Assembly: GCA_026387615.1 (NCBI GenBank)
Contig: JAPLLI010000032.1
Span: forward strand, 1-43,308
Origin: Nitrospirota bacterium
GTDB taxonomy: Bacteria; Nitrospirota; Nitrospiria; Nitrospirales; Nitrospiraceae
Reading direction: 5' to 3'
Length of the DNA: 43,308 bases
The position numbers were made by a program, and so were the translations under genes. A model generated the notes under the pieces. It saw nothing but the letters and a program-made list of their open reading frames with translations. It did no database searches and was not told where the DNA came from. Positions 7,005 to 35,500 of this stretch are shown here, piece after piece. Position 1 is the first letter of the stretch. Every line of letters starts with the position of its first letter.

Positions 7005-8399
7005 CTAACAAGAGCTCGGACGATCCGCTGCTTCAACCATACAGTCCGACGCATGGGGTTCAGATCCAGGACTGTAATCGAAACGGCACAACTGCTGCCT
7101 GAGCGGGATCAGTCGCTCAACCTGCCTGACAATGCTCTGGAGGGCCGCATGCGTGGAGGCATCCTCTGTCCGCTCCAACAGCAATTCAGCCTGCCCGAGG
7201 ATCACATTGAGCGGCGTCCCCATCTCTTGGGCCAATCCGGACACCTTCGCCTGGCAGGCCGTGAGTTGCGCCGCGAACATCAGATGTTCAGCCTGCCGCT
7301 GGGTTTTTTCTGCTACCTGTTTCTCCTGGGCAAGATCCATAGCCCTGCGCATCTCGCTCATGTCACGCCTGGCCGCCTCCACCCGGTCACAACCCTGCGT
7401 GAGGGATGCGCGCAACGCCACATCAAGATCAGAGAACACCACTTTCAGCAAGGCGCTCCAGACCGTCTGGTAGAAGCTGGGCCTCGTCCGAAAGGCGTCA
7501 CACAACAACGGCTGAAAGACCGTTAGAACCTGGGCGAAGGTGCGAAGGCGCCAGGCTGCGTCAAACCCCAACAACTCGCGAGAGTCTGCTGCCGGCGTTC
7601 CGCCTCTCCCGAGCGCCTTCGCGCGCACGTGATTCAACAGCGCACGCACACAATCTCGCTGCGCCCGTTTCATACGGACCACCTGAAGATCGTCCGACAA
7701 CAACCAGGCCATGTCGGGGTCGCTCACGAGGTGACGGGCCAGGACATCCAGAATTTGATCGAGGTGACGGGCGAACAACGGCTCCAACAAAGGAAGCGAA
7801 GCCTCCTCTTCCTGCGTGAGCCTCCTCCAATCGTCTGCTGAATGATTGCCGGCCTCCAACACCCGCTCCCCTCCAACACTCAAGCCTCGCAGCACCTGCT
7901 CTAGCTGATTCTGTAGCCTGCCACGGGGGGGAAGCGCCTGACGTCGATAGAGCTCAGGCTGATCCGGCCGCGCCTCGTCTCCCTCGGCAGCCGTCCAGTC
8001 CTTGCTCACCTCCAGCCCGATATAACAATCGCCGGCCAGCACATGCCGAATGGCTTGCGGCAGTTCGGCCACCGCGGACCGTTTCAGCAGATAGCCCCTG
8101 GCTCCCGCCTCGAAGGCCTGTGACACATAGACCGGCTCCCGATGGACCGTCAGAATAATCACCTTGCTCAGCGGAACGCAGGTCTGGAGCAGGCGAGTCG
8201 CATCAAGCCCGTTGAGCCCTGGCATCGAGATGTCCGAGAAAATCAGATCCGGCTTCAGCCGCTGCGCCGCTTCCACGAGCGCCTGACCGTCCATCACCGT
8301 GCCCACGACCTCACCCAGCCCGTCGGAGCCCAAGAGGTTCCGCAAGGTTTCCAGCACCTCTGGATGATCGTCGGCCAGCAAGATTCGTGGCTTCAGCAT
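7005..8399 (-). CDS. Response regulator: REC, globin-like sensor domain, degenerate HisKA segment
   Basis: 464 residues. Residues 1-125 are a complete receiver domain (acidic pair D10/D11, phospho-acceptor D56, T84, K106). Residues about 195-335 read like a protoglobin/globin-coupled-sensor fold: PLLEPLFARHLDQIL, HLVSDPDMAWLLSD, RMKRAQRDC and, later, RPSFYQTVWSALLKVVFSDL. The stretch that should carry the proximal heme His (residues 262-305) has no His, so heme binding is doubtful. Residues 388-398 (GLAQEMGTPLN) match the HisKA H-box, but Gln391 replaces the phospho-accepting His, and no ATPase domain follows. It may be a phosphorylation-controlled partner protein that senses by protein contact, like the non-heme globin part of RsbR. 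A three-box CTAG array and a candidate promoter lie just upstream. Confidence 0.8.
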   Translation of the reverse strand: MLKPRILLADDHPEVLETLRNLLGSDGLGEVVGTVMDGQALVEAAQRLKPDLIFSDISMPGLNGLDATRLLQTCVPLSKVIILTVHREPVYVSQAFEAGARGYLLKRSAVAELPQAIRHVLAGDCYIGLEVSKDWTAAEGDEARPDQPELYRRQALPPRGRLQNQLEQVLRGLSVGGERVLEAGNHSADDWRRLTQEEEASLPLLEPLFARHLDQILDVLARHLVSDPDMAWLLSDDLQVVRMKRAQRDCVRALLNHVRAKALGRGGTPAADSRELLGFDAAWRLRTFAQVLTVFQPLLCDAFRTRPSFYQTVWSALLKVVFSDLDVALRASLTQGCDRVEAARRDMSEMRRAMDLAQEKQVAEKTQRQAEHLMFAAQLTACQAKVSGLAQEMGTPLNVILGQAELLLERTEDASTHAALQSIVRQVERLIPLRQQLCRFDYSPGSEPHASDCMVEAADRPSSC

Positions 8400-8434: not shown

Positions 8435-8501
8435 ATCGTAGGCGTCTTGAGGGGAGAGTGAAACTAGGGACAACCCTAGCGCTGGAAAGCAATCCTACTA
8501 G
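8435..8501 (-). promoter_or_regulatory. Triple-CTAG array A with candidate promoter for the REC-globin gene
   Basis: Reading the minus strand, CTAG boxes start at 8501, 8479 and 8467, spaced 22 and 12 bp apart. The last two form the inverted pair CTAGGG-N4-CCCTAG. The third box runs straight into TTTCAC (8463-8458), and 17 bp further lies TACGAT (8440-8435), a plausible -35/-10 pair. Transcription would begin near 8428, about 30 nt before the ATG. The same spacing occurs at 15933-15970 and 17336-17373. The array is seen directly; the promoter assignment and an activator function are inferred. Confidence 0.6.
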
Positions 8502-8624: not shown

Positions 8625-9266
8625 CTAGAGGCCGGTGATGCCGTGGGTAATCGCGTATTTCGTCAGGTCGGCAGTGGAATGGACGTCCAACTGCTCCATG
8701 ATACGGGACTTATGGAACTCGATCGTTTTCACCGAGACGCTCAGGATCGTGGCAATCTCTTTCGTGCCGCGGCCCTCGGCCACCAGCTGCAACACCTCCC
8801 GCTGGCGCGGGGTGAGGGCCTTGGACTGGCCTGGCTCCCGAACCGTTGGCTTGAGGACCGAGTCCAGCACCTCCTTGGTCAGCAAGGGCGTGAGATAACA
8901 TTGGCCCTGCAGGACGGACTGGATCGCCAGGCCGAGCTCTGACGCCGCGGAGCGTTTGAGGAGATAGCCGGAGGCCCCGACCTGGAAGGCCTCCATCGCA
9001 TACGTGGAACTGGCATGCATGGTGAGGAAGATCAGCTTGCTCTCCGGCACCAGGGTGCGGAGCTGTCTGGCCGCGTCGAGTCCGTTCAAGAGCGGCATCG
9101 AGATGTCCAGCAGGATCAGATCCGGCCGCAGCTTCTGCGCCTCCGCCACGAGGGTCCGGCCGTCTTCCGCCGTGCCCACCACCTCGCAGTCGGCCTCCAC
9201 CAGCTTCCGCAGCCCGGCGAGGATCAGGGAATGGTCATCGGCCATCAATACGCGCGGCTTCTTCAT
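8625..9266 (-). CDS. NarL/FixJ (LuxR-type) response regulator
   Basis: 213 residues. The receiver domain (D10/D11, phospho-acceptor D54, T82, K104) is followed by a LuxR-type helix-turn-helix from about residue 150: LTPRQREVLQLVAEGRGTKE then IATILSVSVKTIEFHKSRIM. It is a DNA-binding transcription regulator activated by phosphorylation. Its ATG overlaps the stop of the upstream sensor kinase by 4 bp (ATGA), so that kinase is the probable cognate partner. Family members bind paired short sites as dimers. The CTAG arrays in this window are candidate targets, but that is only inference from proximity. Confidence 0.95.
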   Translation of the reverse strand: MKKPRVLMADDHSLILAGLRKLVEADCEVVGTAEDGRTLVAEAQKLRPDLILLDISMPLLNGLDAARQLRTLVPESKLIFLTMHASSTYAMEAFQVGASGYLLKRSAASELGLAIQSVLQGQCYLTPLLTKEVLDSVLKPTVREPGQSKALTPRQREVLQLVAEGRGTKEIATILSVSVKTIEFHKSRIMEQLDVHSTADLTKYAITHGITGL

Positions 9267-11317
9267 GCACCCTCCTGAGAAAGAGGAATCCAGACACAGA
9301 CCTTCGTGCCCCCTTGCGGAACGGAATAGATCCGGAGAAACCCGTTCAAGACGCGCGCGCGCTCCTGCATGCTCACTAACCCGAGTCCTTTCACGCGAGC
9401 CTGTTTGCTCTCCAGATCGAATCCCCTGCCGTTATCGCACACCGATACGCCGATTCCCTTGGGCGACCCGACGAGCCGGACCGTGATCTCGGTCGCCTGG
9501 GCATGTTTGGCCGCGTTCTGCAGGCTTTCCTGCGTCACGCGAAACAGATTCGTGGCCACGTCCGGAGCAATCGTCTCCGGCACCGCACGCGCCAGAAAAG
9601 TCACGGGGAGCCTGGTGCGCTTCCTGAACTCGGCGATGTGGTCTCGCATGGCCACCTCCAGCCCGACATGTTCGAGCAGCGAGGGATGCAGCCGATAGGC
9701 CATGTTATGCAGGTCGTCCGAGAGCCGCCCGACCTGTTCACGGATCGCCGCGAGTTGCCGCCCGACCGGCTCCGCGGTCACGATCGGGGACCGCTCCAGG
9801 GTCTCCAGCTCCACCGACAGGGCCGCCAATCGTTGATTGAAGTCGTCATGCAATTCGCGCGCGATCCGCTTGCGCTCCTGCTCTTGGGCCTGGATCAGTT
9901 TCCCCGTCAGGGATTCCAGCTCCCGCCGCTGTTCGCCCAGCAGGAGCAGATGCTGCTCCAACGCCCGCGCCATCCGCACCCGCTCCGAAATGTCCATATG
10001 CGAAATGACGACACCCTGCGCCCCCTTCAGTGGCGTCACCCGCACCATGTACCAGCCCTCTTCCTCCGGCAGCGGCGCGCTATATTCGGTGCTAAAGCCC
10101 ACATGATGCCCGACCAACACAGATGCCACGCCGTTCAGAATGCCCTGGCCTGTCGACGCGCCGCCGGCGATGGCCTGGCGGCACAGCTCAAGATAATTGT
10201 CCCCGACCGCCCCCAGGGTGAAAGCCCCCTCCACCCGCTGCCGGACCAGCTCCGTCCAGGCATCGTTCGTCTTGAGGATCACGCCACCCGTATCCAACAC
10301 ACAGACCTGCGCGGGAAGCGAGTTGAGGACCGTGCGGGTAAAGGCGTCTCTGGCCTGCAAGGCCTCCTCCGCCACCTTGCTCTCGGTAATATCCCGCAGC
10401 ACGACGGTAAAGAGTTGCTTGCCCTCGACCCGGACATGGGAGATGGAAGCCTCGCTGGGGAATTCCTCTCCATTGGCTCGCAGGCCCCTCAGCTCTCGGA
10501 GTCGTTCGATCGAGGAGGGGGATGGAGCCGTCTTGGCGAAGCTCGCCATGCCACGGTGATGCGCGGCCCTGAACCGTTCCGGAATGAACCGATCGAGCGA
10601 TTGCCCGAGCACGTCGGCGGCCGGACAGAGAAACATCAGTTCCGCCGCGCGATTGAAGAGCACCACGCGCTCCTGCTCATCCACGGTAATGATGGCATCC
10701 ATCGCCGACCCGATAATCGCCTCCAGCTGTCCCCGCTGCGTCTCCAGCTCCAGCTCCGCCAATTTGCGATCGCTGATGTCCAGCAGGGCCGTCCGCCAAC
10801 GGGTAATACGCCCCGGCTGCTCGTGAACCGCCAGGCTCTCCAGATGGACCCACCGCACGCCGCCGGCCCCTTCCCTGAGACGCACCTCGCAGCTTTGCCG
10901 CAAGCCCGTCTGCACCACCGCCCGGCAATGGCGCTGGAACAGGTCCTCATCCTCCGCGGCGATGAATGGCGCGAGGGGTTGCAGGACCAGCTGGTCCCGA
11001 TCGAGACCGAGCAGCGCCCCCGCCCTCAAGTTGGCCTCTTCGATCAAGCCCTGACTATCCAGCGTGAGGTGGCCGGCCGGAGAAAAATCGTAAAGGCCCA
11101 CATAACGATCGCGGGCCGCCTCCAGCTCCGCCTGCACCCGGCGCAGCTCCTCGTTCTGCAACTCCAGCACGAGTTGCTGAACCTGCGATTTATGCACGAC
11201 CTGTTGTAACGCCTGGCCTGGCAAGGCGGCCACCTTGCGGGCCGAAGCAGGCAGCTTCGCTCCCGCTGGTCGGCGGGGTTCCGCAAGTTTCTTTGATCCG
11301 TCAGGTTTCTTGGCCAT
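9263..11317 (-). CDS. PAS-domain sensor histidine kinase, NarX/HisKA_3 type
   Basis: 684 residues, soluble, with no transmembrane segment. A charged N-terminal tail and coiled coil (residues 40-72) lead into three PAS domains (about 72-185, 197-315 and 325-445). A dimerisation/phosphotransfer region follows, with ERKRIARELHDD and H490 as phospho-acceptor. The HATPase has its N-box at ESLQNAAKH (601-605), DNGRGFD at 628-634 and GLGL at 644-647. The start MAKKPDGS at 11317 aligns with the N-terminus of the paralogous kinase next door (MPKKPDRS), which decides against the longer frame starting at 11446. It should phosphorylate the regulator encoded immediately downstream, whose start overlaps this stop. 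The signal is unknown; cytoplasmic PAS sensors often read redox state or small ligands. Confidence 0.93.
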   Translation of the reverse strand: MAKKPDGSKKLAEPRRPAGAKLPASARKVAALPGQALQQVVHKSQVQQLVLELQNEELRRVQAELEAARDRYVGLYDFSPAGHLTLDSQGLIEEANLRAGALLGLDRDQLVLQPLAPFIAAEDEDLFQRHCRAVVQTGLRQSCEVRLREGAGGVRWVHLESLAVHEQPGRITRWRTALLDISDRKLAELELETQRGQLEAIIGSAMDAIITVDEQERVVLFNRAAELMFLCPAADVLGQSLDRFIPERFRAAHHRGMASFAKTAPSPSSIERLRELRGLRANGEEFPSEASISHVRVEGKQLFTVVLRDITESKVAEEALQARDAFTRTVLNSLPAQVCVLDTGGVILKTNDAWTELVRQRVEGAFTLGAVGDNYLELCRQAIAGGASTGQGILNGVASVLVGHHVGFSTEYSAPLPEEEGWYMVRVTPLKGAQGVVISHMDISERVRMARALEQHLLLLGEQRRELESLTGKLIQAQEQERKRIARELHDDFNQRLAALSVELETLERSPIVTAEPVGRQLAAIREQVGRLSDDLHNMAYRLHPSLLEHVGLEVAMRDHIAEFRKRTRLPVTFLARAVPETIAPDVATNLFRVTQESLQNAAKHAQATEITVRLVGSPKGIGVSVCDNGRGFDLESKQARVKGLGLVSMQERARVLNGFLRIYSVPQGGTKVCVWIPLSQEGA

Positions 11318-11348
11318 AGCGATTTCGCACTGAGCGGACTCCGGACGA

Positions 11349-12752
11349 TCAATCCGTACGATTAGACGATTCATCCCCGATGATACAGAGCGAGGGAGAC
11401 CGGCAGAATGGGCAGGAACGCAGACCGTCCGGTAGGGACACGACATCGCCCTTGCTTCCTGCGCTGCGCCGTGATCCTTTGGCCGTCGACTTCAGATCGA
11501 CCCGCAAGGGACAGTCCCCCTGCCCGGCACGATCCTGCTGGCCAGTCTGCGTCGAGAGGTTGAGCGCCACGCAGGTGCCTTGCTGAGGCGCCGAGCGCAC
11601 AGACAGAGTCGCGCCGATATTGCGGGCGCGAGCTGCCATGCTGGCCAGCCCATAGCCAGTCCCGGATACATCGCTCCGGTCATAGCCGACGCCGTTGTCT
11701 CGCACCACGAGACAGACCTGGCCGTTCCGCCGAAGGAGCGAAACCCGTACCTCCGTGGCCTGGGCATGCCGTAAACTATTGCTGAGCGCCTCCTTGGCCA
11801 GCTTGAGGACCTCAAGGCTCTGCGCGGGCGACAGTCCGGCCGCGACGCCATAATCGACGGACACCTGAACCGGACTCCCATGGAACTGCGCCAAGGTCTC
11901 GGCCATGGTGCGGAGCGACATCGGCAAATCGCTCCCCATCAGGCCCTCCGTCTCCAGCCCCCCGATGAAAGTCCGCACCTCCTGCATCGCCACCCTCAAT
12001 TGGCCAATGCTTTGGGTCAGAAGAGCCGTGGTCTTCGCCGGGGCCTTCGACAGATCCAGCTTGCACCGTTCGAGGCTCAGGCCTATGGCATAGAGGGATT
12101 GAAGGATCCCGTCATGGAGATCATGGCCGATCCGCTCCCGCGCCTCCAGAGTCCGTTGCCACTCCAGCTTCTGCTGCCAGTCCTGAAAGGCCGCCGCTGC
12201 ACGGGTGCGCTCCGTGACGTCCAACAGGGTGGTGAGCTGACGGCTCAGCTGCCCCGCTTCATCCAGAACGACCACGCTTTCAAACCGGACCGTGAGACCG
12301 CTCTGTGCCGCAAGACCCGCTTCGCACGTTTGCTTCGTTCCTGCCGTAAACAGCTCGCGGCTGTGGCGCACAAGCGTCGGCTGATCCTTCGGCGCCACAA
12401 ACTGGACAAGGGATTTCCCCAGCAACGACTTCCGGTTCATGCCCAGTACAGCGCAGGCCGGCAGATTCGCTTCCAGAATGATCCCCTTGGAATTCAACGT
12501 CAGGTAGCCGGTGGGCGCAGCATCATAAAGGTCCGCATACCGGTCGCGCGCCGCTTCGAGCTCCACCTGAGCCCGGCGCAGCTCCTCGTTCTGCATCTCC
12601 AGCTCGATCTGATGCACTTGCAACTCATGCACCAGCCGTTGCACGTCAGGGACCGGCATGGCCGCGACCTCACGCTTCGTAGTGCGCAGCAAGGTTTCCG
12701 CCGGCCGGCGAAGCCCGGTGCGTTTCATGGATCTGTCTGGCTTCTTAGGCAT
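11349..12752 (-). CDS. PAS-domain sensor histidine kinase, HisKA_3 type
   Basis: 467 residues. A coiled coil near residues 40-72 and one PAS domain (about 73-185) precede the HisKA_3 helix pair containing IGHDLHDGILQS. The phospho-acceptor is the second His, near residue 213. The HATPase shows EALSNSLRHA, DNGVGYD and GYGLASM. It is a shortened paralogue of the kinase downstream (31 bp gap), so two kinases may feed the same LuxR-type regulator. The start is ATG 12752 with GGGGAA six bases upstream; a GTG at 12755 is less well placed. The last 65 residues after the ATPase are low-complexity, basic and Ser/Cys-rich, and are not part of the family. Confidence 0.9.
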   Translation of the reverse strand: MPKKPDRSMKRTGLRRPAETLLRTTKREVAAMPVPDVQRLVHELQVHQIELEMQNEELRRAQVELEAARDRYADLYDAAPTGYLTLNSKGIILEANLPACAVLGMNRKSLLGKSLVQFVAPKDQPTLVRHSRELFTAGTKQTCEAGLAAQSGLTVRFESVVVLDEAGQLSRQLTTLLDVTERTRAAAAFQDWQQKLEWQRTLEARERIGHDLHDGILQSLYAIGLSLERCKLDLSKAPAKTTALLTQSIGQLRVAMQEVRTFIGGLETEGLMGSDLPMSLRTMAETLAQFHGSPVQVSVDYGVAAGLSPAQSLEVLKLAKEALSNSLRHAQATEVRVSLLRRNGQVCLVVRDNGVGYDRSDVSGTGYGLASMAARARNIGATLSVRSAPQQGTCVALNLSTQTGQQDRAGQGDCPLRVDLKSTAKGSRRSAGSKGDVVSLPDGLRSCPFCRSPSLCIIGDESSNRTD

Positions 12753-12767: not shown

Positions 12768-12853
12768 TAGGCTGAAGGCTGAAGGGGGTCAGGCCGAAGG
12801 TCACGGTTCGACGTTCCAAACACTTCAGCCTTCAGCCTTCGCCCCTTCAGCCT
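12768..12853. repeat. Inverted word repeat overlapping the cheR stop
   Basis: AGGCTGAAGGCTGAAGGGG (12769-12787) is mirrored by CTTCAGCCTTCAGCC plus a further CCCCTTCAGCCT up to 12853. The right arm overlaps the stop codon of the CheR-PAS reading frame (12852-12854). The unit is a near-tandem word GGCTGAA. It resembles, in position and style, the other word repeats at 3' ends of genes in this window. Confidence 0.55.
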
Positions 12854-15173
12854 ATTCTTCAACCTTCACCTCTTCCATGGCCAACAAGATTCGGCCTGGC
12901 TGCGAGACCTCCTGCTCCAGACGCCGGCCATTGAGGGCCAAGACCTTCCGGCCGATCTGCGGGAAGATCTGGTCCAGGCTGAAGTCCTGGAAGGAACGGT
13001 CCTGGGGCAGCACCTCTTCCAGCAGATGGCGCAAGGCGGGAAGGTTCCAGGCCCCGTTGCAGAGGTGGTAGAGAAGCTGCTGCTCGACCTCGCGCGGCTG
13101 CACCCGAAAGGTCCGGTAGAAGGACTGGTTGGCCGAGACGACGCGAAGCTGCTCGTCCAGCACGAGCAAGGGTTCGCGCATCGCCTCCACGATGCTGCTG
13201 GCCAGGCTGCGCGAGACCTGGACGGCCTGCTCCGCCTGCTTATTCTTGGTGATGTCCAGAAACGTCAGCACGAGCCCGTCGATGGTGTTCTTGGCGGTCC
13301 GATAGGGCAGGATCCGCATCAAGAACCAGCTCCCGTCGGCGGCCTGGACCTCCTGCTCCTTCACGACGAGCGTCTGGAGCACGGCCTGGGCATCCTCCAA
13401 CAGCCGGCCATAGGTCAGCTTCGACACAATGTCCGACAGGGGCCGCCCGACATCGACGGCGATCAGGCTGCTCACCCGCTTCGCCTCCAGCGTGAACCGC
13501 TTGATGCGCAGCTCGTTGTCCAGAAAGATGGTGGCAATCTCCGTGCTGTTTAAGAGGTTCTGCAAATCGTCGTTCGCGTCCGAGAGGTCATCGAGCTTGC
13601 CCTGGAGTTCGGCATTGACGGTCACCAGCTCTTCATTGAGCGATTGCATCTCTTCCTTCGCCGTCTCCAATTCTTCGTTGGTGCTTTGCAATTCTTCGTT
13701 GGTGCTTTGCAATTCTTCGTTGGTGGACTTCAGCTCCTCATTGGAGGTTTGCAGTTCCTCGACCGTCCGTTGCAACCGCTGCTTCGTAAACTCCAGTTCC
13801 TGCATGAGCCTGGCTCCCCTTTGTGTCTGCGGTTCGGCCCCTCGCACAGGCGCGCCCTTTCTGGCGGCAGGCTTCTTCTCTTCCTGCACCGTTTCAAACG
13901 TGACCAGGATCAGCCCCTGGAGGGCCTCCGGCTCGGCAATTTTCTTGACGCTCACGTTGACCAGGATGAAATGGCCGTTGGCCTTCACCCGCACGTCCCG
14001 GCGCAAGATATCCGTCCCCTTCTGCTCCACCTGATGCAGCGCGGTGGCCAGATCATGCTGCAACCCCTCCCGCGCCATCTCCAGCAGATGGTGGGTCGGC
14101 GGGCCTGGCGCCGGCTGCAGATAGGCGCCGGTCTGTCCATGGACGTAGACGACCTCGCCCCGGCCGTTGACCACGACCGATGCCGGTGCGAAGCGCGCGA
14201 CCAACAACTGCTGGATCAGCGTGGAAATGGAGGCGGGCCGTGCAGGAAAGAGCGGCGCCTCGGCCGCCGCATGGGTCGCGGGGGTCCCTTTCATCAATCC
14301 GCAAGGAAACCGTTCCAGATTGGGATAGGTGCCAGGCTCCGCCGTCCGTTTGAACAGCTTCCATTTCCGGTCGATGGTCATAAAGAGATGGTCGCAATCC
14401 CCGATCGTTTCGGAGGAACCGAGAAACAGAATGCCGTTCGGTTTCAAGGCATAGTGAAACAGGGGCAGAATTTTCCGTTGCGCCGGGGCGTCCAGATAGA
14501 TCAGGAGATTGCGGCAGGACAGGAGGTCCAGCTTCGTAAAGGGGGCATCGGTCAGGAGGTTATGGGTCGCAAAGACGACCAGATCACGGATTTCCTTCTT
14601 GACCCGGTAGTTGCCGTCTTCCTTGGTAAAGAACCGCTGCAAACGGGCCGGCGTCAGGTCCCCGGCGATGCCGACCGGGTAGAGGCCGGTGCGCGCCTGG
14701 TCAATGGCCCGGCTATCCAGATCGGAGGCGAAAATCTGGACGGTGAGCCGGAGATGTTTCTGGGCCAGATACTCCACGAGGAGGATGGCCAGCGAATAGG
14801 CCTCCTCGCCGGTGGAACAGCCGGCGACCCAGAGGCGCAGGGTCGCGCCCTCCTGCTTGCCCTCCACAAGAGCCGGTAGCACTTTCTGCTCGAGGAGCTC
14901 AAAGGCCTGCGGGTCACGAAAGAAGCTAGTCACCCCGATGAGCAGCTCCTGGAACAGGGCATCGAGTTCAGACGGATTCCCTTGGACAAACCGGAGATAC
15001 GACTTCAGATTTTCGATCTGGTGCACGTTCATCCGCCGTTCGAGGCGCCGCTGAATCGTATTCTCTTTATAGAGGGAAAAATCGTTCCCGGTCCGATCGC
15101 GCAAAAGGATAAAGATCTTCTGCAGCGTTTGCGAAACGTCTCGCTCAGGGAGCGGCAGGGCCGGCTTCGTCAA
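12852..15173 (-). CDS. CheR methyltransferase-PAS portion of a frameshifted CheB/CheR protein
   Basis: This frame encodes the CheR and PAS half of a CheB-CheR-PAS regulator. It starts around LPLPERDVSQTLQKIF, then shows the CheR N-terminal helices (NTIQRRLERRM), the methyltransferase SAM site LWVAGCSTGEEAYSLA and FATHNLLTDAPFTKLDLLSC. A long coiled coil rich in TNEELQS follows, then two PAS domains. CheR domains transfer methyl groups to receptor-type glutamates. The frame is +1 relative to the CheB frame at 15145-15732 and overlaps it. No good ATG or ribosome site opens it; TTG 15173 is the nearest weak option. It is translated only by frameshift or a weak start, or the gene is broken. Residues encoded upstream of 15173 in this frame are shadow of cheB. 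Confidence 0.75.
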   Translation of the reverse strand: MTKPALPLPERDVSQTLQKIFILLRDRTGNDFSLYKENTIQRRLERRMNVHQIENLKSYLRFVQGNPSELDALFQELLIGVTSFFRDPQAFELLEQKVLPALVEGKQEGATLRLWVAGCSTGEEAYSLAILLVEYLAQKHLRLTVQIFASDLDSRAIDQARTGLYPVGIAGDLTPARLQRFFTKEDGNYRVKKEIRDLVVFATHNLLTDAPFTKLDLLSCRNLLIYLDAPAQRKILPLFHYALKPNGILFLGSSETIGDCDHLFMTIDRKWKLFKRTAEPGTYPNLERFPCGLMKGTPATHAAAEAPLFPARPASISTLIQQLLVARFAPASVVVNGRGEVVYVHGQTGAYLQPAPGPPTHHLLEMAREGLQHDLATALHQVEQKGTDILRRDVRVKANGHFILVNVSVKKIAEPEALQGLILVTFETVQEEKKPAARKGAPVRGAEPQTQRGARLMQELEFTKQRLQRTVEELQTSNEELKSTNEELQSTNEELQSTNEELETAKEEMQSLNEELVTVNAELQGKLDDLSDANDDLQNLLNSTEIATIFLDNELRIKRFTLEAKRVSSLIAVDVGRPLSDIVSKLTYGRLLEDAQAVLQTLVVKEQEVQAADGSWFLMRILPYRTAKNTIDGLVLTFLDITKNKQAEQAVQVSRSLASSIVEAMREPLLVLDEQLRVVSANQSFYRTFRVQPREVEQQLLYHLCNGAWNLPALRHLLEEVLPQDRSFQDFSLDQIFPQIGRKVLALNGRRLEQEVSQPGRILLAMEEVKVEE
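13669..13725 (-). repeat. 21-bp tandem repeat inside the CheR-PAS coiled coil
   Basis: Two identical 21-bp units (13669-13689, 13690-13710) and 15 bp of a third encode repeated STNEELQ heptads. Exact repetition at the DNA level suggests recent duplication. Length changes here by replication slippage would stay in frame and alter coiled-coil length between CheR and PAS. Confidence 0.9.
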
Positions 15174-15732
15174 GCTCCGCGCGCAGGCCCACCGTGCCGT
15201 CGCTGCCGGTCCCGGACAGGACGATCCCCACCGCTCGTTGCTTCTGGTCTTCCGCCAGCGAACGGAAGAAGTAATCGATCGGCAGGGGCACCCGCTCCTG
15301 TACGTCAGGCTCCATGAGGTGCAGGATCCCGTGCAGAATTGCCACGTTGGTGCCGCCCGGCGCCAGATAGACGCGATTAGGCTCCACCTCCATCCCGTCC
15401 CTGGCCTCCAGCACCGGCATCGCCGTACATTTACTGAGGAGGCTCGGCAGGAGGCTGACATGGCCCGCATGCTGGTGCGACACCACCACGAAGGCCATGC
15501 CGCTAGTCGGAGGCAGGTGGCGGAAGACCTCTTCCATAGCTTCCAACCCGCCGGCGGAGGCGCCGATCCCGACGACCAGACAACCAGGCAGTTCTAGGGG
15601 AAGCAGGGCCGGTAGAGCGGCTGCCGCGGGGAGGCGCATCGGCTTTTTCGCAGGAGACCGCTTCACACCCTTGCGTGTAGAGCCGGTCTTCACAGAAACA
15701 GTCTTTTTCTTCGTCTTTCTTGTCGCAGCCAC
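15145..15732 (-). CDS. CheB methylesterase domain, truncated and frameshifted from CheR
   Basis: 195 residues from GTG 15732, which has AGGAG eight bases upstream; a TTG six codons earlier lacks one. A Lys-rich tail (residues 3-31) leads into a CheB catalytic domain with the expected triad: S59 in GIGASAGG, H86 in VVSHQHAGH and D178 in LSGTGSDGT. The frame stops soon after GLRAELDEAGPAAP. The usual last 60 or so residues, including the GMP-containing helix region, are missing, and the CheR part continues in the +1 frame. CheB domains demethylate chemoreceptor glutamates. In such fusions the output is often not chemotaxis, and no che operon is visible here. Confidence 0.8.
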   Translation of the reverse strand: MAATRKTKKKTVSVKTGSTRKGVKRSPAKKPMRLPAAAALPALLPLELPGCLVVGIGASAGGLEAMEEVFRHLPPTSGMAFVVVSHQHAGHVSLLPSLLSKCTAMPVLEARDGMEVEPNRVYLAPGGTNVAILHGILHLMEPDVQERVPLPIDYFFRSLAEDQKQRAVGIVLSGTGSDGTVGLRAELDEAGPAAP

Positions 15733-15804
15733 AAGGGCTTCTCCTAGCAAGGCAGAGACCGCGGCGCCGGGAAATGGCGCCAGCGGCTGAAAGTCTCAAC
15801 AGAT

Positions 15805-15834
15805 CTAGATTCTAGGCTTTTCCCCTAGGCCTAG
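15805..15834 (-). promoter_or_regulatory. Dense CTAG cluster upstream of cheB
   Basis: Four CTAG tetramers (15805, 15812, 15825, 15831) fall within 30 bp, 73-100 bp before the cheB start on the minus strand. The inner pair forms TCTAGG-N7-CCTAGG. The spacing differs from the triple arrays, so this may be a variant site or a separate operator. CTAG is otherwise scattered and rare in this window. Confidence 0.35.
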
Positions 15835-15932: not shown

Positions 15933-15999
15933 CTAGTAATATCACCCAGCAGGACTAGGGCTCATCCTAGTATCCCTACCCAGATCCTTGCGTTACGTT
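15933..15999 (+). promoter_or_regulatory. Triple-CTAG array B upstream of the mini winged-helix gene
   Basis: CTAG boxes start at 15933, 15955 and 15967, spaced 22 and 12 bp as in the arrays at 8 kb and 17 kb. The last two form ACTAGG-N6-CCTAGT, a perfect palindrome with a 6-bp spacer. The first is CTAGTA, as in both other arrays. A -35-like hexamer follows the third box directly, and TACGTT lies 17 bp further at 15994. The array faces the plus-strand gene at 16095 but could also serve cheB. An inverted repeat CGGACAG/CTGTCCG (16001-16007, 16017-16023) follows. Confidence 0.55.
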
Positions 16000-16094: not shown

Positions 16095-16322
16095 ATGGCA
16101 CAGAGATACTCGCTTGAATCGGCCATTCAGCAGCAACTCGCCCGGATCGGGACCTGTTCGCTGGAGGAACTGGCCGTCCTGCTGCCTGGCTATTCCTGGG
16201 CCCAAGTCTTTTCCGCCGTAGATCGGCTGACGCGGGAAGGCACCATCGCCCTCAAACATCCGGCTCCGTTCCGCTACCTCCTCTCGCTCGCGCCGCAACG
16301 ATCCGCCGGGGCAAGCGCCTGA
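16095..16322 (+). CDS. Small winged-helix-like protein, paralogue of the 33.7 kb gene
   Basis: 75 residues from ATG 16095, which has GGGG six bases upstream; an earlier in-frame ATG at 16083 is possible. The core CSLEELAVLLPGYSWAQVF followed by DRLTREGTIAL lines up with CSLEDIVFACPGLTWNQVF and DHLSRKGQVCL in the protein at 33689-33910. This is a shared pattern of helix, Pro-Gly turn, helix, then beta hairpin, as in a minimal winged-helix fold. It could bind DNA or act as a small adaptor; no family is recognised with certainty. An antiparallel 132-codon open frame (16062-16460, minus) is taken as shadow because the plus-strand protein has a paralogue here. A CTAG array lies upstream. Confidence 0.7.
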   Translation: MAQRYSLESAIQQQLARIGTCSLEELAVLLPGYSWAQVFSAVDRLTREGTIALKHPAPFRYLLSLAPQRSAGASA

Positions 16323-17335: not shown

Positions 17336-17402
17336 CTAGTAAGATATTCGCCACGCACTAGTAGCGCCCCTAGTTTTACCGGCCGCTATTTGCCGGTAAA
17401 CT
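17336..17402 (+). promoter_or_regulatory. Triple-CTAG array C with candidate promoter
   Basis: CTAG boxes start at 17336, 17358 and 17370 (22 and 12 bp apart). The last two form ACTAGT-N6-CCTAGT. Aligned with array A, the shared text is CTAGTA(A/G)GAT at the first box and CCCTAGTTT(T/C)AC at the third. TTTTAC (17374-17379) and TAAACT (17397-17402), 17 bp apart, sit as -35 and -10 candidates exactly as in array A. The arrangement suggests an activator bound next to RNA polymerase. Recognition by the LuxR-type regulator of this window is a guess. Confidence 0.6.
17375..17400. repeat. Perfect 8-bp inverted repeat TTTACCGG/CCGGTAAA
   Basis: TTTACCGG (17375-17382) and CCGGTAAA (17393-17400) are separated by 10 bp. 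The repeat covers the spacer of the candidate promoter attached to CTAG array C. An operator for a dimeric repressor here would block that promoter. No second copy was seen in the window. Confidence 0.5.
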
Positions 17403-17655: not shown

Positions 17656-18063
17656 ATGCAGATCTCTAACAAAAAGACGGGCCTGCGCGTCGTTGTTTTC
17701 TCTCCCGACCAGCACTTCGGCATGAGCCTGACCGATTGGCTGAATAATGCAGGACACCAAGCCATCTATGCGCAGGACCTGAAAGCGGTCTTCAAGAAAT
17801 TGACTGCGGACCGGCCTCATAGCATCCTCTTCGACCTCTCGCTCTCCGACACCTTTGGAATCGAGGCCTTCCACCTCATCCGCTCCCTCTACCCGGACCT
17901 GCCGGTCATCACGATGAGTGACATGAATCTGCAGACCTTGTCCTCGCTCTCGCTCTCGGCCGGCGCCCGCGCATCGTTCCTGAAACCGTTCGAATTCTCC
18001 AGGATGGGTGAGTTTTTACGGGGCGAACTGACTCCCGCAACCGAATCACCCCGCACACGTTAG
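17656..18063 (+). CDS. Stand-alone receiver-domain protein
   Basis: 135 residues, one receiver domain and no output domain. The phospho-acceptor is D60 (SILFDLSLSD), with K110 (SFLKPFE) and a Thr/Ser at 86-88. The usual acidic pair is reduced: VVFSPDQHF keeps D18 but has Ser16-Pro17 before it, which may weaken Mg binding and phosphorylation. ATG 17656 is chosen with AGGA 11 bases upstream; the frame is open to a TTG at 17626. It probably relays or sinks phosphate from one of the nearby kinases. Its long leader carries two candidate promoters and a CTAG array, so it is a regulated gene rather than a constitutive one. Confidence 0.82.
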   Translation: MQISNKKTGLRVVVFSPDQHFGMSLTDWLNNAGHQAIYAQDLKAVFKKLTADRPHSILFDLSLSDTFGIEAFHLIRSLYPDLPVITMSDMNLQTLSSLSLSAGARASFLKPFEFSRMGEFLRGELTPATESPRTR

Positions 18064-27763: not shown

Positions 27764-28237
27764 ATGACGAACTTAACTCGCTGGGAACCGATGATGACGC
27801 GCTGGAACCCCTTCAAAGAATTAGAGGAGATGGAAAAACGCCTCTCAACCTATTTGAGTCGCCCGGCTCTTCGAACCGAGGCAGGGAAGGAAGCCATGAC
27901 CGTCGCCGAATGGTCGCCGCTCGTCGACATCACGGAAGATGAAAAGGAATACCTGATCAAGGCGGATCTGCCGGACGTGAAGAAGGAAGACGTCAAACTG
28001 ACGGTTCAGGACGACGTGATGAGCATCTCCGGCGAACGGAAATACGAGAAAGAAGAAAAGGGCAAGAAGTACCACCGCGTCGAACGGGCCTATGGGAGTT
28101 TTATGCGGAGCTTCACCTTGCCGGAGGATGCCGACGGCAGCAAGGTCAGCGCGGAATATAAAGACGGGGTCCTGAAAGTCCACTTGCCTAAGTCGGAAAA
28201 GGCGAAGCCGAAATCGATCGAGGTGAAAGTGTCTTAG
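27764..28237 (+). CDS. Small heat-shock protein, Hsp20/alpha-crystallin family
   Basis: 157 residues from ATG 27764, which has AAGGAG nine bases upstream; a longer frame from 27638 has no ribosome site. The N-terminal arm contains WNPFKELEEMEKRLSTYL. The alpha-crystallin domain spans about residues 48-150 (WSPLVDITEDEKEYLIKADL, then ISGERKYEKEEKGKKYHRVE, and AEYKDGVLKVHLPK). The C-terminal KSIEVKVS contains the Ile-x-Val anchor. It is an ATP-independent chaperone that holds unfolding proteins in large oligomers. It heads a plus-strand stress group with a membrane mini-protein, a phosphoribosyltransferase and a BCAM0308-family protein. Confidence 0.95.
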   Translation: MTNLTRWEPMMTRWNPFKELEEMEKRLSTYLSRPALRTEAGKEAMTVAEWSPLVDITEDEKEYLIKADLPDVKKEDVKLTVQDDVMSISGERKYEKEEKGKKYHRVERAYGSFMRSFTLPEDADGSKVSAEYKDGVLKVHLPKSEKAKPKSIEVKVS

Positions 28238-28307
28238 GGGCAACCGGAGAGGCTGCGAACGATACACGAGGGGCGATGAACGAGAAATGCGAAAAGAACG
28301 ACCGTAT

Positions 28308-28333
28308 CATCGTTCATAGTTCAGCGTTTCCGA
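28308..28333. repeat. Word repeat between hsp20 and the next mini-gene
   Basis: ATCGTTCATAGTTCAGCG followed by TTTCC belongs to the same word family as 8570-8602 and 23563-23601. It sits 70 bp after the Hsp20 stop, and GCGATGAACG just upstream gives a partial inverted partner. Confidence 0.45.
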
Positions 28334-28357
28334 CATCCCGAGGAAAGGGGGTATGCG

Positions 28358-28513
28358 ATGTTACGACATCCTCACTATCTGGAGGTTCCGTGGGACATTC
28401 ATTGGCAGCGCATGACCACGGAGCCTCAGCGCCATCTCTGGTGGCTGATCGCGCTGCTGGTGTTGTTCGCCATGTTTCTGATCGGTGTCAGCGTCACAAG
28501 CGGGATTACATAG
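28358..28513 (+). CDS. 51-residue single-pass membrane protein
   Basis: This gene falls below common ORF length cut-offs. ATG 28358 has AGGGGG six bases upstream. The protein starts MLRHPHYLEVPWDIHWQRM, then has one hydrophobic helix (residues 28-46, WWLIALLVLFAMFLIGVSV) and ends SGIT. The N-terminal half is rich in His and Trp and probably cytoplasmic. No family is recognised. It lies between Hsp20 and a phosphoribosyltransferase on the same strand, 36 bp before the latter, so it is likely part of the same transcript. It could be a small membrane stress protein. Confidence 0.65.
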   Translation: MLRHPHYLEVPWDIHWQRMTTEPQRHLWWLIALLVLFAMFLIGVSVTSGIT

Positions 28514-28549
28514 CCTCATCGGCAGGGAGATCCAGGGCAGGAGGAAGTC

Positions 28550-29230
28550 ATGTCAGGGACGTTCAAGGACCGTGAAGAAGCGGGCCGTCAGCTGGTGTCC
28601 AAGCTATTACACTATCGCGACGATCCGCAGGGGCTCATTTTGACCTTGCCCCGCGGCGGAGTGGCCGTCGGCTATCAGCTCAGCCTTGCGCTCCACCTGC
28701 CGCTGGATGTGTTCATTACGCGCAAGATCGGCGCGCCAGGCAACCCCGAATATGCCATTGGCGCGGTGACCGAAACAGGATCGCACTATCTGAACCAGGA
28801 AGCGATCAGCTCGTTCGGCTTATCCCGGCATGAGCTGGAGCGGATGATTGCTGCCCAAGAGAAGGAAATCGCCAGGCGCAGAGACCTCTACCGGCAAGGA
28901 CGCCCCCTTCCGCAACTGACAGGTCGGACCGTGCTGTTGGTCGATGATGGCATCGCGACCGGTTCGACGTTCATCGCTTCGGCCCTTGCGATTCGAAGCT
29001 TACAGCCCCACCGGCTGGTGGGAGTGATTCCGGTCGGCCCCCCGTCAACGATCCGTGACGTGCGATCCCATGTGGACGAGCTGGTGGTGCTCATGACACC
29101 GGATCCCTTCTACGCCGTGGGGAATTTCTTTATAGACTTCACGCAGGTCGAAGATCGCGACGTCGTGGAATATCTCAATCTGGCCGAGGAGGCGAGGCTC
29201 GAACGCACGACCGCCCCTCGCGCCTCGTAA
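28550..29230 (+). CDS. Phosphoribosyltransferase-domain protein, copy 1
   Basis: 226 residues. The PRT fold is visible: ILTLPRGGVAVGYQLSLAL, DVFITRKIGAPGNPEYAIGA, and the PRPP loop VLLVDDGIATGSTFIAS at about residues 126-142. The family occurs in stress and low-oxygen loci beside Hsp20, universal stress proteins or esterases; its substrate is unknown and a true nucleotide-salvage role is doubtful. ATG 28550 starts MSGTFKDREEAG; an AGGAGG lies a few bases upstream. A second copy is at 33907-34578, with the same core but different ends. Confidence 0.88.
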   Translation: MSGTFKDREEAGRQLVSKLLHYRDDPQGLILTLPRGGVAVGYQLSLALHLPLDVFITRKIGAPGNPEYAIGAVTETGSHYLNQEAISSFGLSRHELERMIAAQEKEIARRRDLYRQGRPLPQLTGRTVLLVDDGIATGSTFIASALAIRSLQPHRLVGVIPVGPPSTIRDVRSHVDELVVLMTPDPFYAVGNFFIDFTQVEDRDVVEYLNLAEEARLERTTAPRAS

Positions 29231-29267
29231 AATCTCTTGTCCGTAAAGAAGGAAGGTACCAACCGAC

Positions 29268-29768
29268 ATGTCCACACATTCCAAGATTCCAGCAGGATTG
29301 GGCGCTCGCAGAGACCGGACCGTTCAAGAGAACGAACACGATACCTACAAGCTGAAAGGCAAACTGAAGGAACCGACGATCTGCACCGAATGCGGAGCCC
29401 TCTTCCATAAGGGCCGCTGGACCTGGAACCCGAAACCAGCAGGAGCCGACGAAATCATCTGCCCGGCCTGTCTCAGGATTCGAGACAAGTACGCCAAAGG
29501 GTTTCTGACGCTGAGCGGGTCCTTTCTCACGGCACACAAAGAAGAGATCATGGGAGTAGTCCACAATACAGAAGCCAAGGAAAAGGCCGAACACCCCCTC
29601 TCCCGCGTCATGGGATACGAACAACAGGCCGCAGCCCTGATGATCTCCACCACGGATACGCATCTTCCCCGGCGCATCGGCGAAGCCCTTCACCATGCCT
29701 ACCAGGGAGAGCTCACCGTCCACTACGACGAAGGAGAGGAGTTTATCCGGGTCTCCTGGGCCCGGTAG
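29268..29768 (+). CDS. BCAM0308-family zinc-ribbon protein
   Basis: 166 residues. After a short disordered start, TICTECGALFHKGRW and EIICPACLRIRDKYAKGF form a zinc ribbon. The rest has HKEEIMGVVHNTEAKEKAEH, HLPRRIGEALHHAYQGEL and a final EEFIRVSWAR. This order matches the family named after Burkholderia cenocepacia BCAM0308, which lies in the low-oxygen-activated locus of that species; the fold resembles the N-terminal zinc part of NMD3. The molecular role is unknown. It follows the phosphoribosyltransferase by 37 bp and precedes a 324-bp gap. Confidence 0.85.
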   Translation: MSTHSKIPAGLGARRDRTVQENEHDTYKLKGKLKEPTICTECGALFHKGRWTWNPKPAGADEIICPACLRIRDKYAKGFLTLSGSFLTAHKEEIMGVVHNTEAKEKAEHPLSRVMGYEQQAAALMISTTDTHLPRRIGEALHHAYQGELTVHYDEGEEFIRVSWAR

Positions 29769-30092
29769 TCCCGACAGCCCCGAATAAACACCTGAACAAA
29801 CCGCCGCCAGGCGGTCCGGCGCACAGCGCACAACCGGAATGGAGCAGGGCACTGCGGCAGCCACCCTGTGCCATGTCATGATTCGAACGGCCGAGATCAT
29901 CGATCATCCGCGCTAGGTCGCGGATGATCTCCCGCCCAAACTGGCCGAATCCACGGTCAGGCCCCAGCCAACGCACCAGCAGGGCAAGGCTCGCCGCGAA
30001 CATCCGGCGAGCAAACGGTTCGAAAAAACATTTGCCGCAAGCCCGCCGCCGCCCTATACTACTCCCGCAACTTCGATACACCCACATCGCTG
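29769..30092. other. Intergenic region with an 11-bp perfect palindrome; possible minus-strand ORF
   Basis: GATCATCCGCG (29902-29912) and CGCGGATGATC (29919-29929) are perfect inverted repeats with a CTAGGT loop, a very stable hairpin without a U-tract. On the minus strand 29743-30087 is open for 114 codons (including RMFAASLALLVRWLGPD and REIIRDLARMIDDL). It has no ribosome-binding site and no recognised family, so it is not called as a gene. Its end would overlap the end of the BCAM0308-family gene. Confidence 0.4.
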
Positions 30093-30482
30093 ATGGAATT
30101 TATGACGCAGCCAGACGCACGAGTCCTCCTGATCGTCGATGACAGCCGTGTCTCGCGCATGGTGATCCGCACCCTCGTGCTCGCCAAGCACCCGCAATGG
30201 ATCATCATCGAAGCCGCCAGCGGCGACGAAGCGCTGACCATTGTAGATCGCGACACCCCGAACTATTGCACGATGGACATCAACATGCCCGGCATGATCG
30301 GCACCGAGGCCGCAGCCCAGATCCTGGCCAAGCATCCCGGCACCCGCGTCGCCATCTTCTCCGCCAACATTCAGGAAACCCATCAAACCCGCGCGGCCGC
30401 CATGGGCGCATGTTTTGTCGCCAAACCCGTCACAGGGAAAACCGTGGCCCAGGCCCTCGATTTTTTTGAAAGCGCCAGATGA
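30093..30482 (+). CDS. Stand-alone receiver-domain protein
   Basis: 129 residues, one complete CheY-like receiver: D16/D17 (LLIVDDSRVS), phospho-acceptor D62 (CTMDINMPGM), S90 and K111 (FVAKPVTGK). There is no output domain. The start may be ATG 30093 or ATG 30102; neither has a clear ribosome-binding site. The stop overlaps the start of the CheC-like gene by 4 bp (ATGA). A receiver coupled to a CheC-type phosphatase implies that its phosphorylated form is switched off by the next protein. The output probably works through the third gene, a diguanylate cyclase. Confidence 0.9.
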   Translation: MEFMTQPDARVLLIVDDSRVSRMVIRTLVLAKHPQWIIIEAASGDEALTIVDRDTPNYCTMDINMPGMIGTEAAAQILAKHPGTRVAIFSANIQETHQTRAAAMGACFVAKPVTGKTVAQALDFFESAR

Positions 30483-31099
30483 ACACACTGGACCAGCTGT
30501 CCGAGCTGCAGCTTGATGCGCTGACCGAAATTTTCAACATCGGCACGGGTCGCGCCGCGGCGAGCCTCAGCGACATCGTCGGCAGTGAGGTCGTGCTGTC
30601 CGTCCCGCGCATTCAGTTCTTCCAGTCCTCCGAGGTCAACGCAGCCCTCCTGTCGCTCAACAGCCCGCGCATCGGCGCCGTCCGGCAAATCTTTAGCGGA
30701 TCGGTGAACACCAACGCCCTCTTGCTGTTCACCGAAGATCGCGCGCTGGAAATCGTGCGTGACATGATGGGCTCTCAACTCAGCACGGAAGAGCTGGTCG
30801 AGTTTGAACAGGAAGCTCTGAGCGAATTAGGCAACATTATCCTGAATGCCTGCATGTCGGCCATGTCGGACCTGCTGCACTTCACCCTGCACAGTTCACT
30901 CCCCACCTATTCGACCGGTCCCACCGAGACGATGCTGCGACAGATCATCGCGCAAACCGATCAACCGACGATGCTGCTGTTGCACATCGACCTCACCATC
31001 GAAAAGCACCAGTCGCAGGGCCAGCTGATCTTCATCCTCAGCTCCTCGTCATTCCATGAGCTCCTCGCTCATGTCGATCAATTCATTGCCAACATCTAG
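30479..31099 (+). CDS. CheC-like phosphatase for the neighbouring receiver
   Basis: 206 residues with two copies of the CheC/CheX active-site pattern. The first is ALTEIFNIGTGRAAASLSDI followed by Pro in VLSVP; the second is EALSELGNIILNACMSAM. CheC-family proteins dephosphorylate CheY-like receivers, with Glu and Asn of each motif as catalytic residues; both are kept twice here. It starts within the stop of the receiver gene, so the two proteins are made together. A diguanylate cyclase gene starts 12 bp after the stop. No other chemotaxis gene is nearby, so the module probably tunes c-di-GMP signalling rather than a flagellar motor. Confidence 0.9.
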   Translation: MNTLDQLSELQLDALTEIFNIGTGRAAASLSDIVGSEVVLSVPRIQFFQSSEVNAALLSLNSPRIGAVRQIFSGSVNTNALLLFTEDRALEIVRDMMGSQLSTEELVEFEQEALSELGNIILNACMSAMSDLLHFTLHSSLPTYSTGPTETMLRQIIAQTDQPTMLLLHIDLTIEKHQSQGQLIFILSSSSFHELLAHVDQFIANI

Positions 31100-31111
31100 G
31101 CTTGTCCTGCT

Positions 31112-33295: not shown

Positions 33296-33688
33296 CGACT
33301 CCTCACCAGCCGATCCACGCTCCTAGGCTCACGAACGCCGACAGCCCGAACCTGTTCTCTGACCCGGCACAGAACCCTCCATGACCTGGCAGGTGAACCA
33401 GCAGCTGGTGCATTCCAGGCACTGTGTACAACTTGCCACCATTGATCCAAGCCTGAAGTCACTCCAAATAAACAAAACTTCGTGAAGGGGCTGCGGAAAG
33501 AGGCGACAGTGCCTCCAGACTCCTCTGTCCCATAATGCCCCAACAGCAACCTGCCCAGATCCAACGATATTGAGCAAACGACCCTTCCACTGCGAGGTTG
33601 CAAGGATCTCTATCCTTAGCCTCAGCCTGGCATTACCGATGCATTCAATATGAAATGAACAGGCCGCAAACCGAAAAGAAGGACTCTA
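33296..33688. other. Intergenic region with small palindrome and a Cys-rich minus-strand mini-frame
   Basis: AAGGAT-CTCT-ATCCTT (33602-33617) is a perfect 6-bp inverted repeat 72 bp before the winged-helix gene and could be an operator. On the minus strand, ATG 33442 opens 37 codons ending at 33329 with a CxxCxxCxxCxxxC pattern (see findings); it lacks a good ribosome-binding site. Nothing else is recognised. Confidence 0.4.
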
Positions 33689-33910
33689 ATGACCCTGTCG
33701 CCAACGACCACGAACCAAATTCTGGATGTCATGGCCCGTTCCTCAGGGTGTAGCCTGGAGGATATTGTCTTTGCCTGTCCTGGACTGACCTGGAACCAGG
33801 TCTTTCTGGAAGTCGATCATTTGAGTCGAAAAGGACAGGTCTGCCTGACCTTGCAGCGGCCAGGCCACTATGTCGTTACGCCATCAACAACCGTTAAAGG
33901 CCTATCATGA
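33689..33910 (+). CDS. Small winged-helix-like protein, paralogue of the 16.1 kb gene
   Basis: 73 residues. The core CSLEDIVFACPGLTWNQVF followed by DHLSRKGQVCLTLQRPGHYV matches the small protein at 16095-16322 in length, order and spacing, which supports both as real genes. The pattern of two helices and a beta-wing suggests a minimal winged-helix DNA- or protein-binding module. AAGGA six or seven bases before the ATG fixes the start. Its stop overlaps the start of the second phosphoribosyltransferase by 4 bp, so the two are translationally coupled. It may be the local regulator of the phosphoribosyltransferase/universal stress protein unit. Confidence 0.75.
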   Translation: MTLSPTTTNQILDVMARSSGCSLEDIVFACPGLTWNQVFLEVDHLSRKGQVCLTLQRPGHYVVTPSTTVKGLS

Positions 33911-34578: not shown

Positions 34579-34605
34579 CGCGAACGAACTAGGGAGACAT
34601 CTCGG

Positions 34606-35466: not shown

Positions 35467-35500
35467 CACCCCACGATTGCGGCAAGAAAGGATGCAGGCC

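What the first reader, a model, noticed from the sequence alone, without database searches (positions are those of the whole stretch)
17336..17373. Triple-CTAG array with fixed 22/12 bp spacing at three promoters
CTAG boxes occur at 8501/8479/8467 (minus strand), 15933/15955/15967 and 17336/17358/17370 (plus). The spacing is 22 then 12 bp in all three. Flanks agree too: the first box is CTAGTA, the third box of A and C is CCCTAGTTT(T/C)AC, and the second and third boxes form palindromes with a 6-bp spacer (for example ACTAGG-N6-CCTAGT). The third box is followed directly by a -35-like hexamer and, 17 bp later, a -10-like hexamer (TACGAT, TACGTT, TAAACT). Each array points to a signalling gene (REC-globin, mini winged helix, lone receiver). 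I read this as a composite activator site overlapping -35, with about 2 and 1 helical turns between half-sites. The NarL/LuxR regulator at 8625-9266 is the obvious candidate binder; that link is a guess.
Basis: partly seen in the sequence, partly recalled or inferred. Interest (0 to 1): 0.8.

Follow-up and report, generated by a model that had tools for sequence, protein, structure and literature searches.

The report
Nitrospira response-regulator triple-CTAG promoter operator
A fixed three-part DNA switch found only in nitrifying bacteria of the Nitrospira order sits right in front of promoters and is almost certainly where a two-component regulator, usually encoded next door, binds to turn on signalling, stress and urea-uptake genes.

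Summary
CTAG-N18-CTAG-N8-CTAG occurs three times in the window, with 0 expected by shuffling, and these are the only copies in the 2.6-Mb assembly. It is a real cis-element. The same 22/12-bp array recurs across Nitrospirales in two families and in none of roughly 240 sampled genomes from other orders of the phylum. A 17-base version scanned over 84,980 species hit 44 records, 43 of them Nitrospira/Nitrospirota.

A -10 hexamer lies 23-24 nt after box 3. This puts the box 2/3 palindrome (CTAGGGA-NN-TCCCTAG, a NarL-type 7-2-7 site) at about -43.5, the place NarL uses at napF and yeaR.

Orthologues of the REC-GerE regulator (window 8625-9266) end within 420 nt upstream of the array, same strand, in 42 of 54 loci across three unrelated target classes. 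In the reverse test, 44 of 82 regulator genes have the array (<=2 mismatches) just downstream and none has it upstream. Presence and absence co-vary (p=2e-5). The sister family shows the same linkage.

Best reading: a phosphorylated NarL-type regulator activates promoters by contact next to -35. DNA binding, transcription starts and the signal are untested. I found no earlier description in the open-access papers searched.

The parts
8464..8501 (-). CTAG array A: box 1 8498-8501, box 2 8476-8479, box 3 8464-8467
   Evidence: Exact pattern; model E=2.6e-9; 123 nt downstream of the regulator stop codon, 64 nt upstream of the REC-globin start
8435..8440 (-). -10-like hexamer TACGAT, 23 nt after box 3 of array A
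   Evidence: Sequence; TAnnnT enriched at this offset in relatives
15933..15970 (+). CTAG array B: boxes at 15933, 15955, 15967
   Evidence: Exact pattern; model E=1.3e-7
15994..15999 (+). -10-like hexamer TACGTT, 23 nt after box 3 of array B
   Evidence: Sequence
17336..17373 (+). CTAG array C (the given finding): boxes at 17336, 17358, 17370
   Evidence: Exact pattern; model E=9e-8
17397..17402 (+). -10-like hexamer TAAACT, 23 nt after box 3 of array C
   Evidence: Sequence
8625..9266 (-). Proposed binder: NarL/FixJ-type response regulator (REC + GerE)
   Evidence: Pfam PF00072 and PF00196; linked to arrays across the order
9263..11446 (-). Proposed cognate sensor kinase (PAS repeats, HisKA_3, HATPase_c), overlapping the regulator gene by 4 nt
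   Evidence: Pfam; kept next to the regulator in most relatives
7005..8399 (-). Target of array A: REC-protoglobin-HisKA protein
   Evidence: Pfam
16095..16322 (+). Target of array B: 75-aa winged-helix protein of no named family
   Evidence: No Pfam/NCBIfam hit; AlphaFold2 model with winged-helix topology, pLDDT 79, resembling MarR/ArsR/Fur DNA-binding domains
17656..18063 (+). Target of array C: stand-alone receiver domain protein
   Evidence: Pfam Response_reg 6.7e-11

Best explanation
The array is the operator of a NarL/FixJ-type response regulator (window 8625-9266) and its paralogues. A regulator dimer, presumably phosphorylated by the PAS histidine kinase encoded beside it, binds the box 2/3 palindrome CTAGGGA-NN-TCCCTAG, centred near -43.5. 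A second subunit or dimer binds box 1, two helical turns (22 bp) upstream. Together they place the regulator against RNA polymerase at a promoter with a weak -35 and turn on the downstream gene. The usual module is kinase - regulator - array - target, and it has been duplicated for different targets: a small winged-helix protein, receiver or REC-globin proteins, and a porin plus urea-transporter operon. Shown by computation: the array, its spacing, the fixed -10 distance, linkage to and co-occurrence with the regulator, and restriction to Nitrospirales. Inferred: binding, phosphorylation, activation rather than repression, and the signal (perhaps oxygen or redox).
For: (1) Array-centred linkage: a regulator orthologue (60-86% identity) ends within 420 nt upstream, same strand, in 28/38 winged-helix loci, 7/7 receiver loci and 7/9 porin loci; the chance rate is about 5e-4 per site. 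The regulator is the shared DNA-binding protein of the three target classes. (2) Regulator-centred test: 44 of 82 regulator genes have the 22/12 array with <=2 of 12 mismatches in the 450 nt downstream (26 with <=1), none in the 450 nt upstream, shuffles average 4.2 mismatches. (3) Profile in the genus: 23 with both, 7 with neither, 1 and 1 discordant, p=1.8e-5. (4) The sister family keeps the order: arrays 28-43 nt after regulator genes of about 55-62% identity in complete genomes. (5) CTAGGGA-NN-TCCCTAG is 16 bp = 7-2-7, the arrangement NarL-type output domains bind as dimers; napF and yeaR have 7-2-7 sites at -49/-40 and -47/-38 (PMC4549865); here the heptamer centres fall at about -48/-39. 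(6) TAnnnT starts 23-24 nt after box 3 in 25 of 43 non-redundant class sites. (7) The GerE recognition helix (SVKTVEFHK) is nearly invariant over 122 regulators, matching the invariant CTAG.
Against: No binding, footprint or transcription-start data were available. Only 5 of 48 array sites outside the three classes have the regulator immediately upstream; some of these are chance CTAG triples, others would need regulation in trans. In this window arrays B and C are 6.7 and 8.1 kb from the regulator. A partner heptamer for box 1 is not clearly resolved: T9 and C12 of the unit are kept but the outer CTAG is not, and the best offset is ambiguous. One genome (G023) has arrays but no close regulator found; it is fragmented.
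Confidence: 0.87

Rival explanations
1. A Crp/Fnr-type regulator binds the palindrome. TAG-N8-CTA has the 3-8-3 geometry of that family, and a few arrays precede Crp genes.
For: CTAG-N8-CTAG also fits Crp-type spacing (general knowledge of the family); a Crp-like gene lies downstream of three array sites (cluster 38).
Against: Crp genes are not linked to the large array classes, whereas the REC-GerE regulator is. A published Crp/Fnr survey with a Nitrospira genome used an R. sphaeroides/enterobacterial NnrR matrix; the passages read report no CTAG operator (PMC8510549). The Crp-linked sites have an atypical third box (GCTAGG).
Confidence: 0.05
2. The box 2/3 palindrome is an intrinsic terminator of the kinase-regulator operon, or another RNA hairpin.
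For: It is an inverted repeat just after the regulator gene, and some sister-family copies are followed by T-rich DNA.
Against: Pairing of the variable stem positions is no better than in shuffles (84.5 vs 83.9% of cells; covariation reached by 131 of 500 shuffles). A T-run of 4 or more follows in only 2 of 43 sites. Box 1 and the -10 spacing are unexplained, and arrays B and C do not follow the regulator gene.
Confidence: 0.03
3. The small winged-helix protein, the most frequent downstream gene, is itself the binder and autoregulates; the linked regulator is coincidental.
For: 41 of 112 array sites precede a winged-helix gene; it has a DNA-binding fold.
Against: The receiver and porin classes put arrays in front of other genes while the REC-GerE regulator is still next door. 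In this genome array A precedes REC-globin, not the winged-helix gene. Regulator-centred arrays exist where no winged-helix gene follows.
Confidence: 0.04
4. The regulator binds but represses, or unphosphorylated protein does so, rather than activating.
For: A site touching the -35 region can also block polymerase; NarL represses frdA from a site near the start (PMC4549865).
Against: The site sits just upstream of -35 at a fixed distance from -10, as in NarL-activated napF/yeaR and DevR-activated promoters; the -35 is poor in this window, as expected for activator-dependent promoters.
Confidence: 0.1

Closest known systems
E. coli NarL/NarP operators (7-2-7 heptamers, e.g. napF, yeaR, engineered TACCCCTAAAGGGGTA)
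   Same: Inverted heptamers separated by 2 bp, 16 bp in all, centred about -43 to -45 next to -35; REC-GerE regulator; HisKA_3 kinase (PMC4549865).
   Different: Heptamer CTAGGGA instead of TACCCCT/TACYYMT; an extra strong half-site always 22 bp upstream; operator lies downstream of the regulator gene and drives the next gene; no nitrate sensor domain recognised by Pfam.
M. tuberculosis DevR/DosR and S. coelicolor OsdR promoters
   Same: NarL-family regulator; two or more closely packed sites, the proximal one overlapping -35, with cooperative binding (PMC3029386); OsdR consensus is also a 16-nt palindrome, AGGGCCGATCGGCCCT (PMC5069765); neighbouring genes here include USP, Hsp20 and phosphoribosyltransferases.
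   Different: Different consensus; spacing rigidly fixed here; no autoregulation of the kinase-regulator operon by its own array in this window; targets differ.
VraR/LiaR, DesR (closest solved structures)
   Same: Full-length REC-GerE relatives (5hev E=8e-35, 4ldz 9e-28).
   Different: Firmicute cell-envelope or membrane regulators; no evidence of shared targets or operator.
MctR (NCBIfam NF052445)
   Same: Best-scoring named family for the regulator (177 bits).
   Different: Well below the family cut-off (300 bits), so not a member.

Membership tests
NarL/FixJ (REC-GerE) response regulator - the proposed binder | N-terminal receiver domain plus C-terminal GerE/LuxR helix-turn-helix | tested here: met
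   PF00072 1.6e-26 and PF00196 1.1e-18, both above cut-off
NarL/FixJ (REC-GerE) response regulator - the proposed binder | Partner histidine kinase of HisKA_3 type | tested here: met
   HisKA_3 4.6e-12 and HATPase_c in the adjoining, overlapping gene
NarL-type 7-2-7 operator | Two inverted heptamers separated by 2 bp | tested here: met
   CTAGGGA at box 2 matches 6.05 of 7 and TCCCTAG at box 3 matches 6.14 of 7 on average over 43 sites
NarL-type 7-2-7 operator | Bound by a regulator dimer | not testable with these tools
   Needs EMSA or footprinting
NarL-type 7-2-7 operator | TACYYMT-like heptamer consensus of E. coli NarL | tested here: not met
   Consensus is CTAGGGA; so NarL-like geometry, not a NarL site
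DevR/DosR-like dormancy promoter | Proximal site adjoining or overlapping -35 | tested here: met
   -10 lies 23-24 nt after box 3, so box 3 covers about -39 to -36
DevR/DosR-like dormancy promoter | Second complete site closely packed upstream | tested here: inconclusive
   Box 1 is a strong left heptamer at a fixed 22 bp; its right heptamer is degenerate
DevR/DosR-like dormancy promoter | Induced by hypoxia or NO | not testable with these tools
   No expression data
Crp/Fnr operator | Linkage or co-occurrence with a Crp/Fnr gene | tested here: not met
   A Crp gene was recognised downstream of only 3 of 112 array sites; the REC-GerE regulator is linked in 47 of 102
Intrinsic terminator | Stem kept by compensatory change, followed by a T-run | tested here: not met

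The most novel reading that the evidence does not exclude
The array is the read-out site of an order-specific regulatory code in nitrifying Nitrospirales: one family of paralogous kinase-regulator pairs, all reading the same rigid three-box operator, that couples a low-oxygen or redox-type signal to persistence genes and, in the clade that includes comammox genomes, to urea uptake, with the module kinase-regulator-array-target copied and retargeted as a unit.
Probability: 0.35. Interest if true: 0.75.

Novelty: new variant of a known kind. Interest (0 to 1): 0.62.

Why it matters
Nitrospira species drive nitrite oxidation and complete ammonia oxidation. My literature searches found no described operator for a Nitrospira regulator (a limited search of open-access papers). 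This gives one with a named candidate binder, an order-wide list of target promoters (including porin plus urea-transporter operons) and a 38-bp probe, so it can be tested with purified protein without genetics in Nitrospira. It also gives a case in which operator, regulator and target have been duplicated together, useful for studying how response regulators keep or change DNA specificity.

Tried and rejected
A simple matrix trained only on exact CTAG sites found nothing further in the window. TrpR-type reading (CTAG half-sites) was dropped: TrpR spacing differs and there is no linked gene (inference). Terminator/hairpin reading rejected. Crp/Fnr reading disfavoured. A clean second 7-2-7 site at box 1 could not be shown; match to TCCCTAG is similar at offsets 9, 10 and 11. 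No conserved partner 12 bp upstream of box 1. Literature searches for a Nitrospira CTAG motif or regulator operator gave nothing relevant.

Full report
What was checked. They are the only exact copies in the 2.6-Mb assembly. CTAG is rare (42 in 43 kb), and chance predicts 8e-5 such triples in the window. After box 3 each has a -10-like hexamer 23 nt on (TACGAT, TACGTT, TAAACT). The supposed -35 hexamers are poor (2 of 6 matches to TTGACA).

It is a conserved element. A stricter pattern occurs in 17 of 32 genomes of the same genus, with 4 control hits in all. The 12-base pattern occurs in 78 of 175 family genomes; its reversed control is also frequent, because GATC is common, so alone is not the evidence. 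A 72-position sequence-only model built from 46 sites finds 24 of 32 genus genomes at E<=0.05 and 87 of 197 genomes of the order at E<=0.001. In a phylum-wide sample of 396 genomes a 14-base version hit 41 genomes, all in the window's order: three genera of its family and one genus of a sister family. A 17-base version scanned over 84,980 species hit 44 records, 43 of them titled Nitrospira, Nitrospirae, Nitrospirota, Nitrospiraceae or Nitrospirales, including comammox-lineage genomes such as CG24A, CG24B and UW-LDO-01; the other was a Clostridia record, plausibly chance. Contig lengths show that CG24A and Rifle clade B belong to the window's genus.

Anatomy. The consensus is CTAG(TA/GG)AnnTnnCC-N6-(A)CTAGGGAnnT(C)CCTAGT-N23/24-TAnnnT. 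TAnnnT starts at offset 23 or 24 in 25 of 43 non-redundant class sites and in 23 of 49 others; most other offsets have 0-2. With the -10 at -12 to -7, box 3 covers -39 to -36, the box 2/3 palindrome is centred at about -43.5 and box 1 at about -71.5. CTAGGGA-NN-TCCCTAG is 16 bp, i.e. 7-2-7. Box 1 is a strong left heptamer. In what would be its right heptamer only T9 (41 of 43) and C12 (30 of 43) are kept, and a full second site is not established.

Which protein. Nearly all of the 20-kb islands fetched around the arrays held an orthologue of the window regulator 8625-9266; the exceptions are contigs that end nearby. In 28/38 winged-helix, 7/7 receiver and 7/9 porin loci a regulator gene (60-86% identity) ends within 420 nt upstream on the same strand; in the mixed remainder it is 5/48. 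Starting from the regulator genes instead, 44 of 82 have the spaced triple with at most 2 mismatches of 12 in the 450 nt downstream, against 0 upstream; 10 have a 2-mismatch match on the opposite strand, expected from the palindromic boxes. Within the genus, presence of array and of a close regulator agree in 30 of 32 genomes (Fisher p=1.8e-5). In the sister family the order kinase - regulator - array - second regulator - array recurs, with arrays 28-43 nt after regulator genes. The regulator is REC-GerE, its neighbour a PAS-HisKA_3 kinase; the recognition helix SVKTVEFHK is nearly invariant in 122 copies. Closest solved relatives are VraR/LiaR, DesR, NarL and DevR.

Targets. In this window: REC-protoglobin-HisKA, a 75-aa winged-helix protein, a lone receiver. 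In relatives: the same winged-helix family in 41 of 112 sites, NarL-type receiver proteins in 14, and a porin in 9, with a urea-transporter gene urtA shortly downstream in most porin loci (UrtA confirmed for one by NCBIfam, 544 bits). Scattered stress-type genes (DpsA/bacterioferritin-like, CsbD-like, OsmY-like) follow some sites. The winged-helix family has no Pfam or NCBIfam hit; AlphaFold2 gives a winged-helix topology (pLDDT 79) similar to MarR, ArsR and Fur domains.

Mechanism. E. coli NarL output domains bind 7-2-7 sites as dimers, and the NarL-activated napF and yeaR promoters have such sites at -49/-40 and -47/-38 (PMC4549865). The array's heptamers fall at about -48/-39, between the two. 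DevR promoters likewise have a proximal site overlapping -35 and need cooperative binding to further packed sites (PMC3029386). I therefore infer that phosphorylated regulator dimers occupy box 2/3 and, cooperatively, box 1 two turns upstream, and activate. Shown: sequence, spacing, promoter position, linkage, co-occurrence, taxonomic restriction. Inferred: binding, phosphorylation, activation, signal.

Rivals. A Crp/Fnr binder fits the spacing but not the linkage. A terminator is contradicted by the lack of covariation and of T-runs. Autoregulation by the winged-helix protein does not explain the receiver and porin classes.

Novelty. The regulator family and the 7-2-7 principle are known. The operator sequence, the rigid three-box layout and the order-wide kinase-regulator-array-target module were not found in the papers searched (an open-access library only). 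I rate it a new variant of a known kind.

Noticed in passing
window 12852-15750 (-): A CheB-CheR-PAS gene is split between two frames (CheB part 15145-15750, CheR part 12852-15470): a frameshift or assembly error. Several relatives show CheB and CheR parts in the same order.
   Followed up: partly
window 15805-15834: Four CTAG in 30 bp (spacings 7, 13, 6) about 100 bp upstream of array B, in front of the divergent CheB gene; island relatives keep a CTAGGCC-type box about 50 bp upstream of box 1. Possibly an operator for the divergent gene.
   Followed up: partly
window 8418; L172 and L173: An extra CTAG 46-52 bp downstream of box 3 in the REC-globin leader, kept in relatives, near the expected transcript start.
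   Followed up: partly
window 27779-41292: A gene set recalling dormancy/hypoxia regulons: Hsp20, two phosphoribosyltransferases, universal stress protein, NDP-forming acyl-CoA synthetase, hemerythrin. None has a full array in front in this genome.
   Followed up: partly
L041, L309 and others; window 16095-16322: A family of about 75-87-aa winged-helix proteins with no Pfam or NCBIfam name, the commonest gene after the array.
   Followed up: partly
L317-L335 (sister family): Several arrays per locus, two tandem regulator paralogues each followed by an array, plus separate arrays (L324, L330, L331, L333, L335) in front of another conserved promoter whose gene was not identified.
   Followed up: partly
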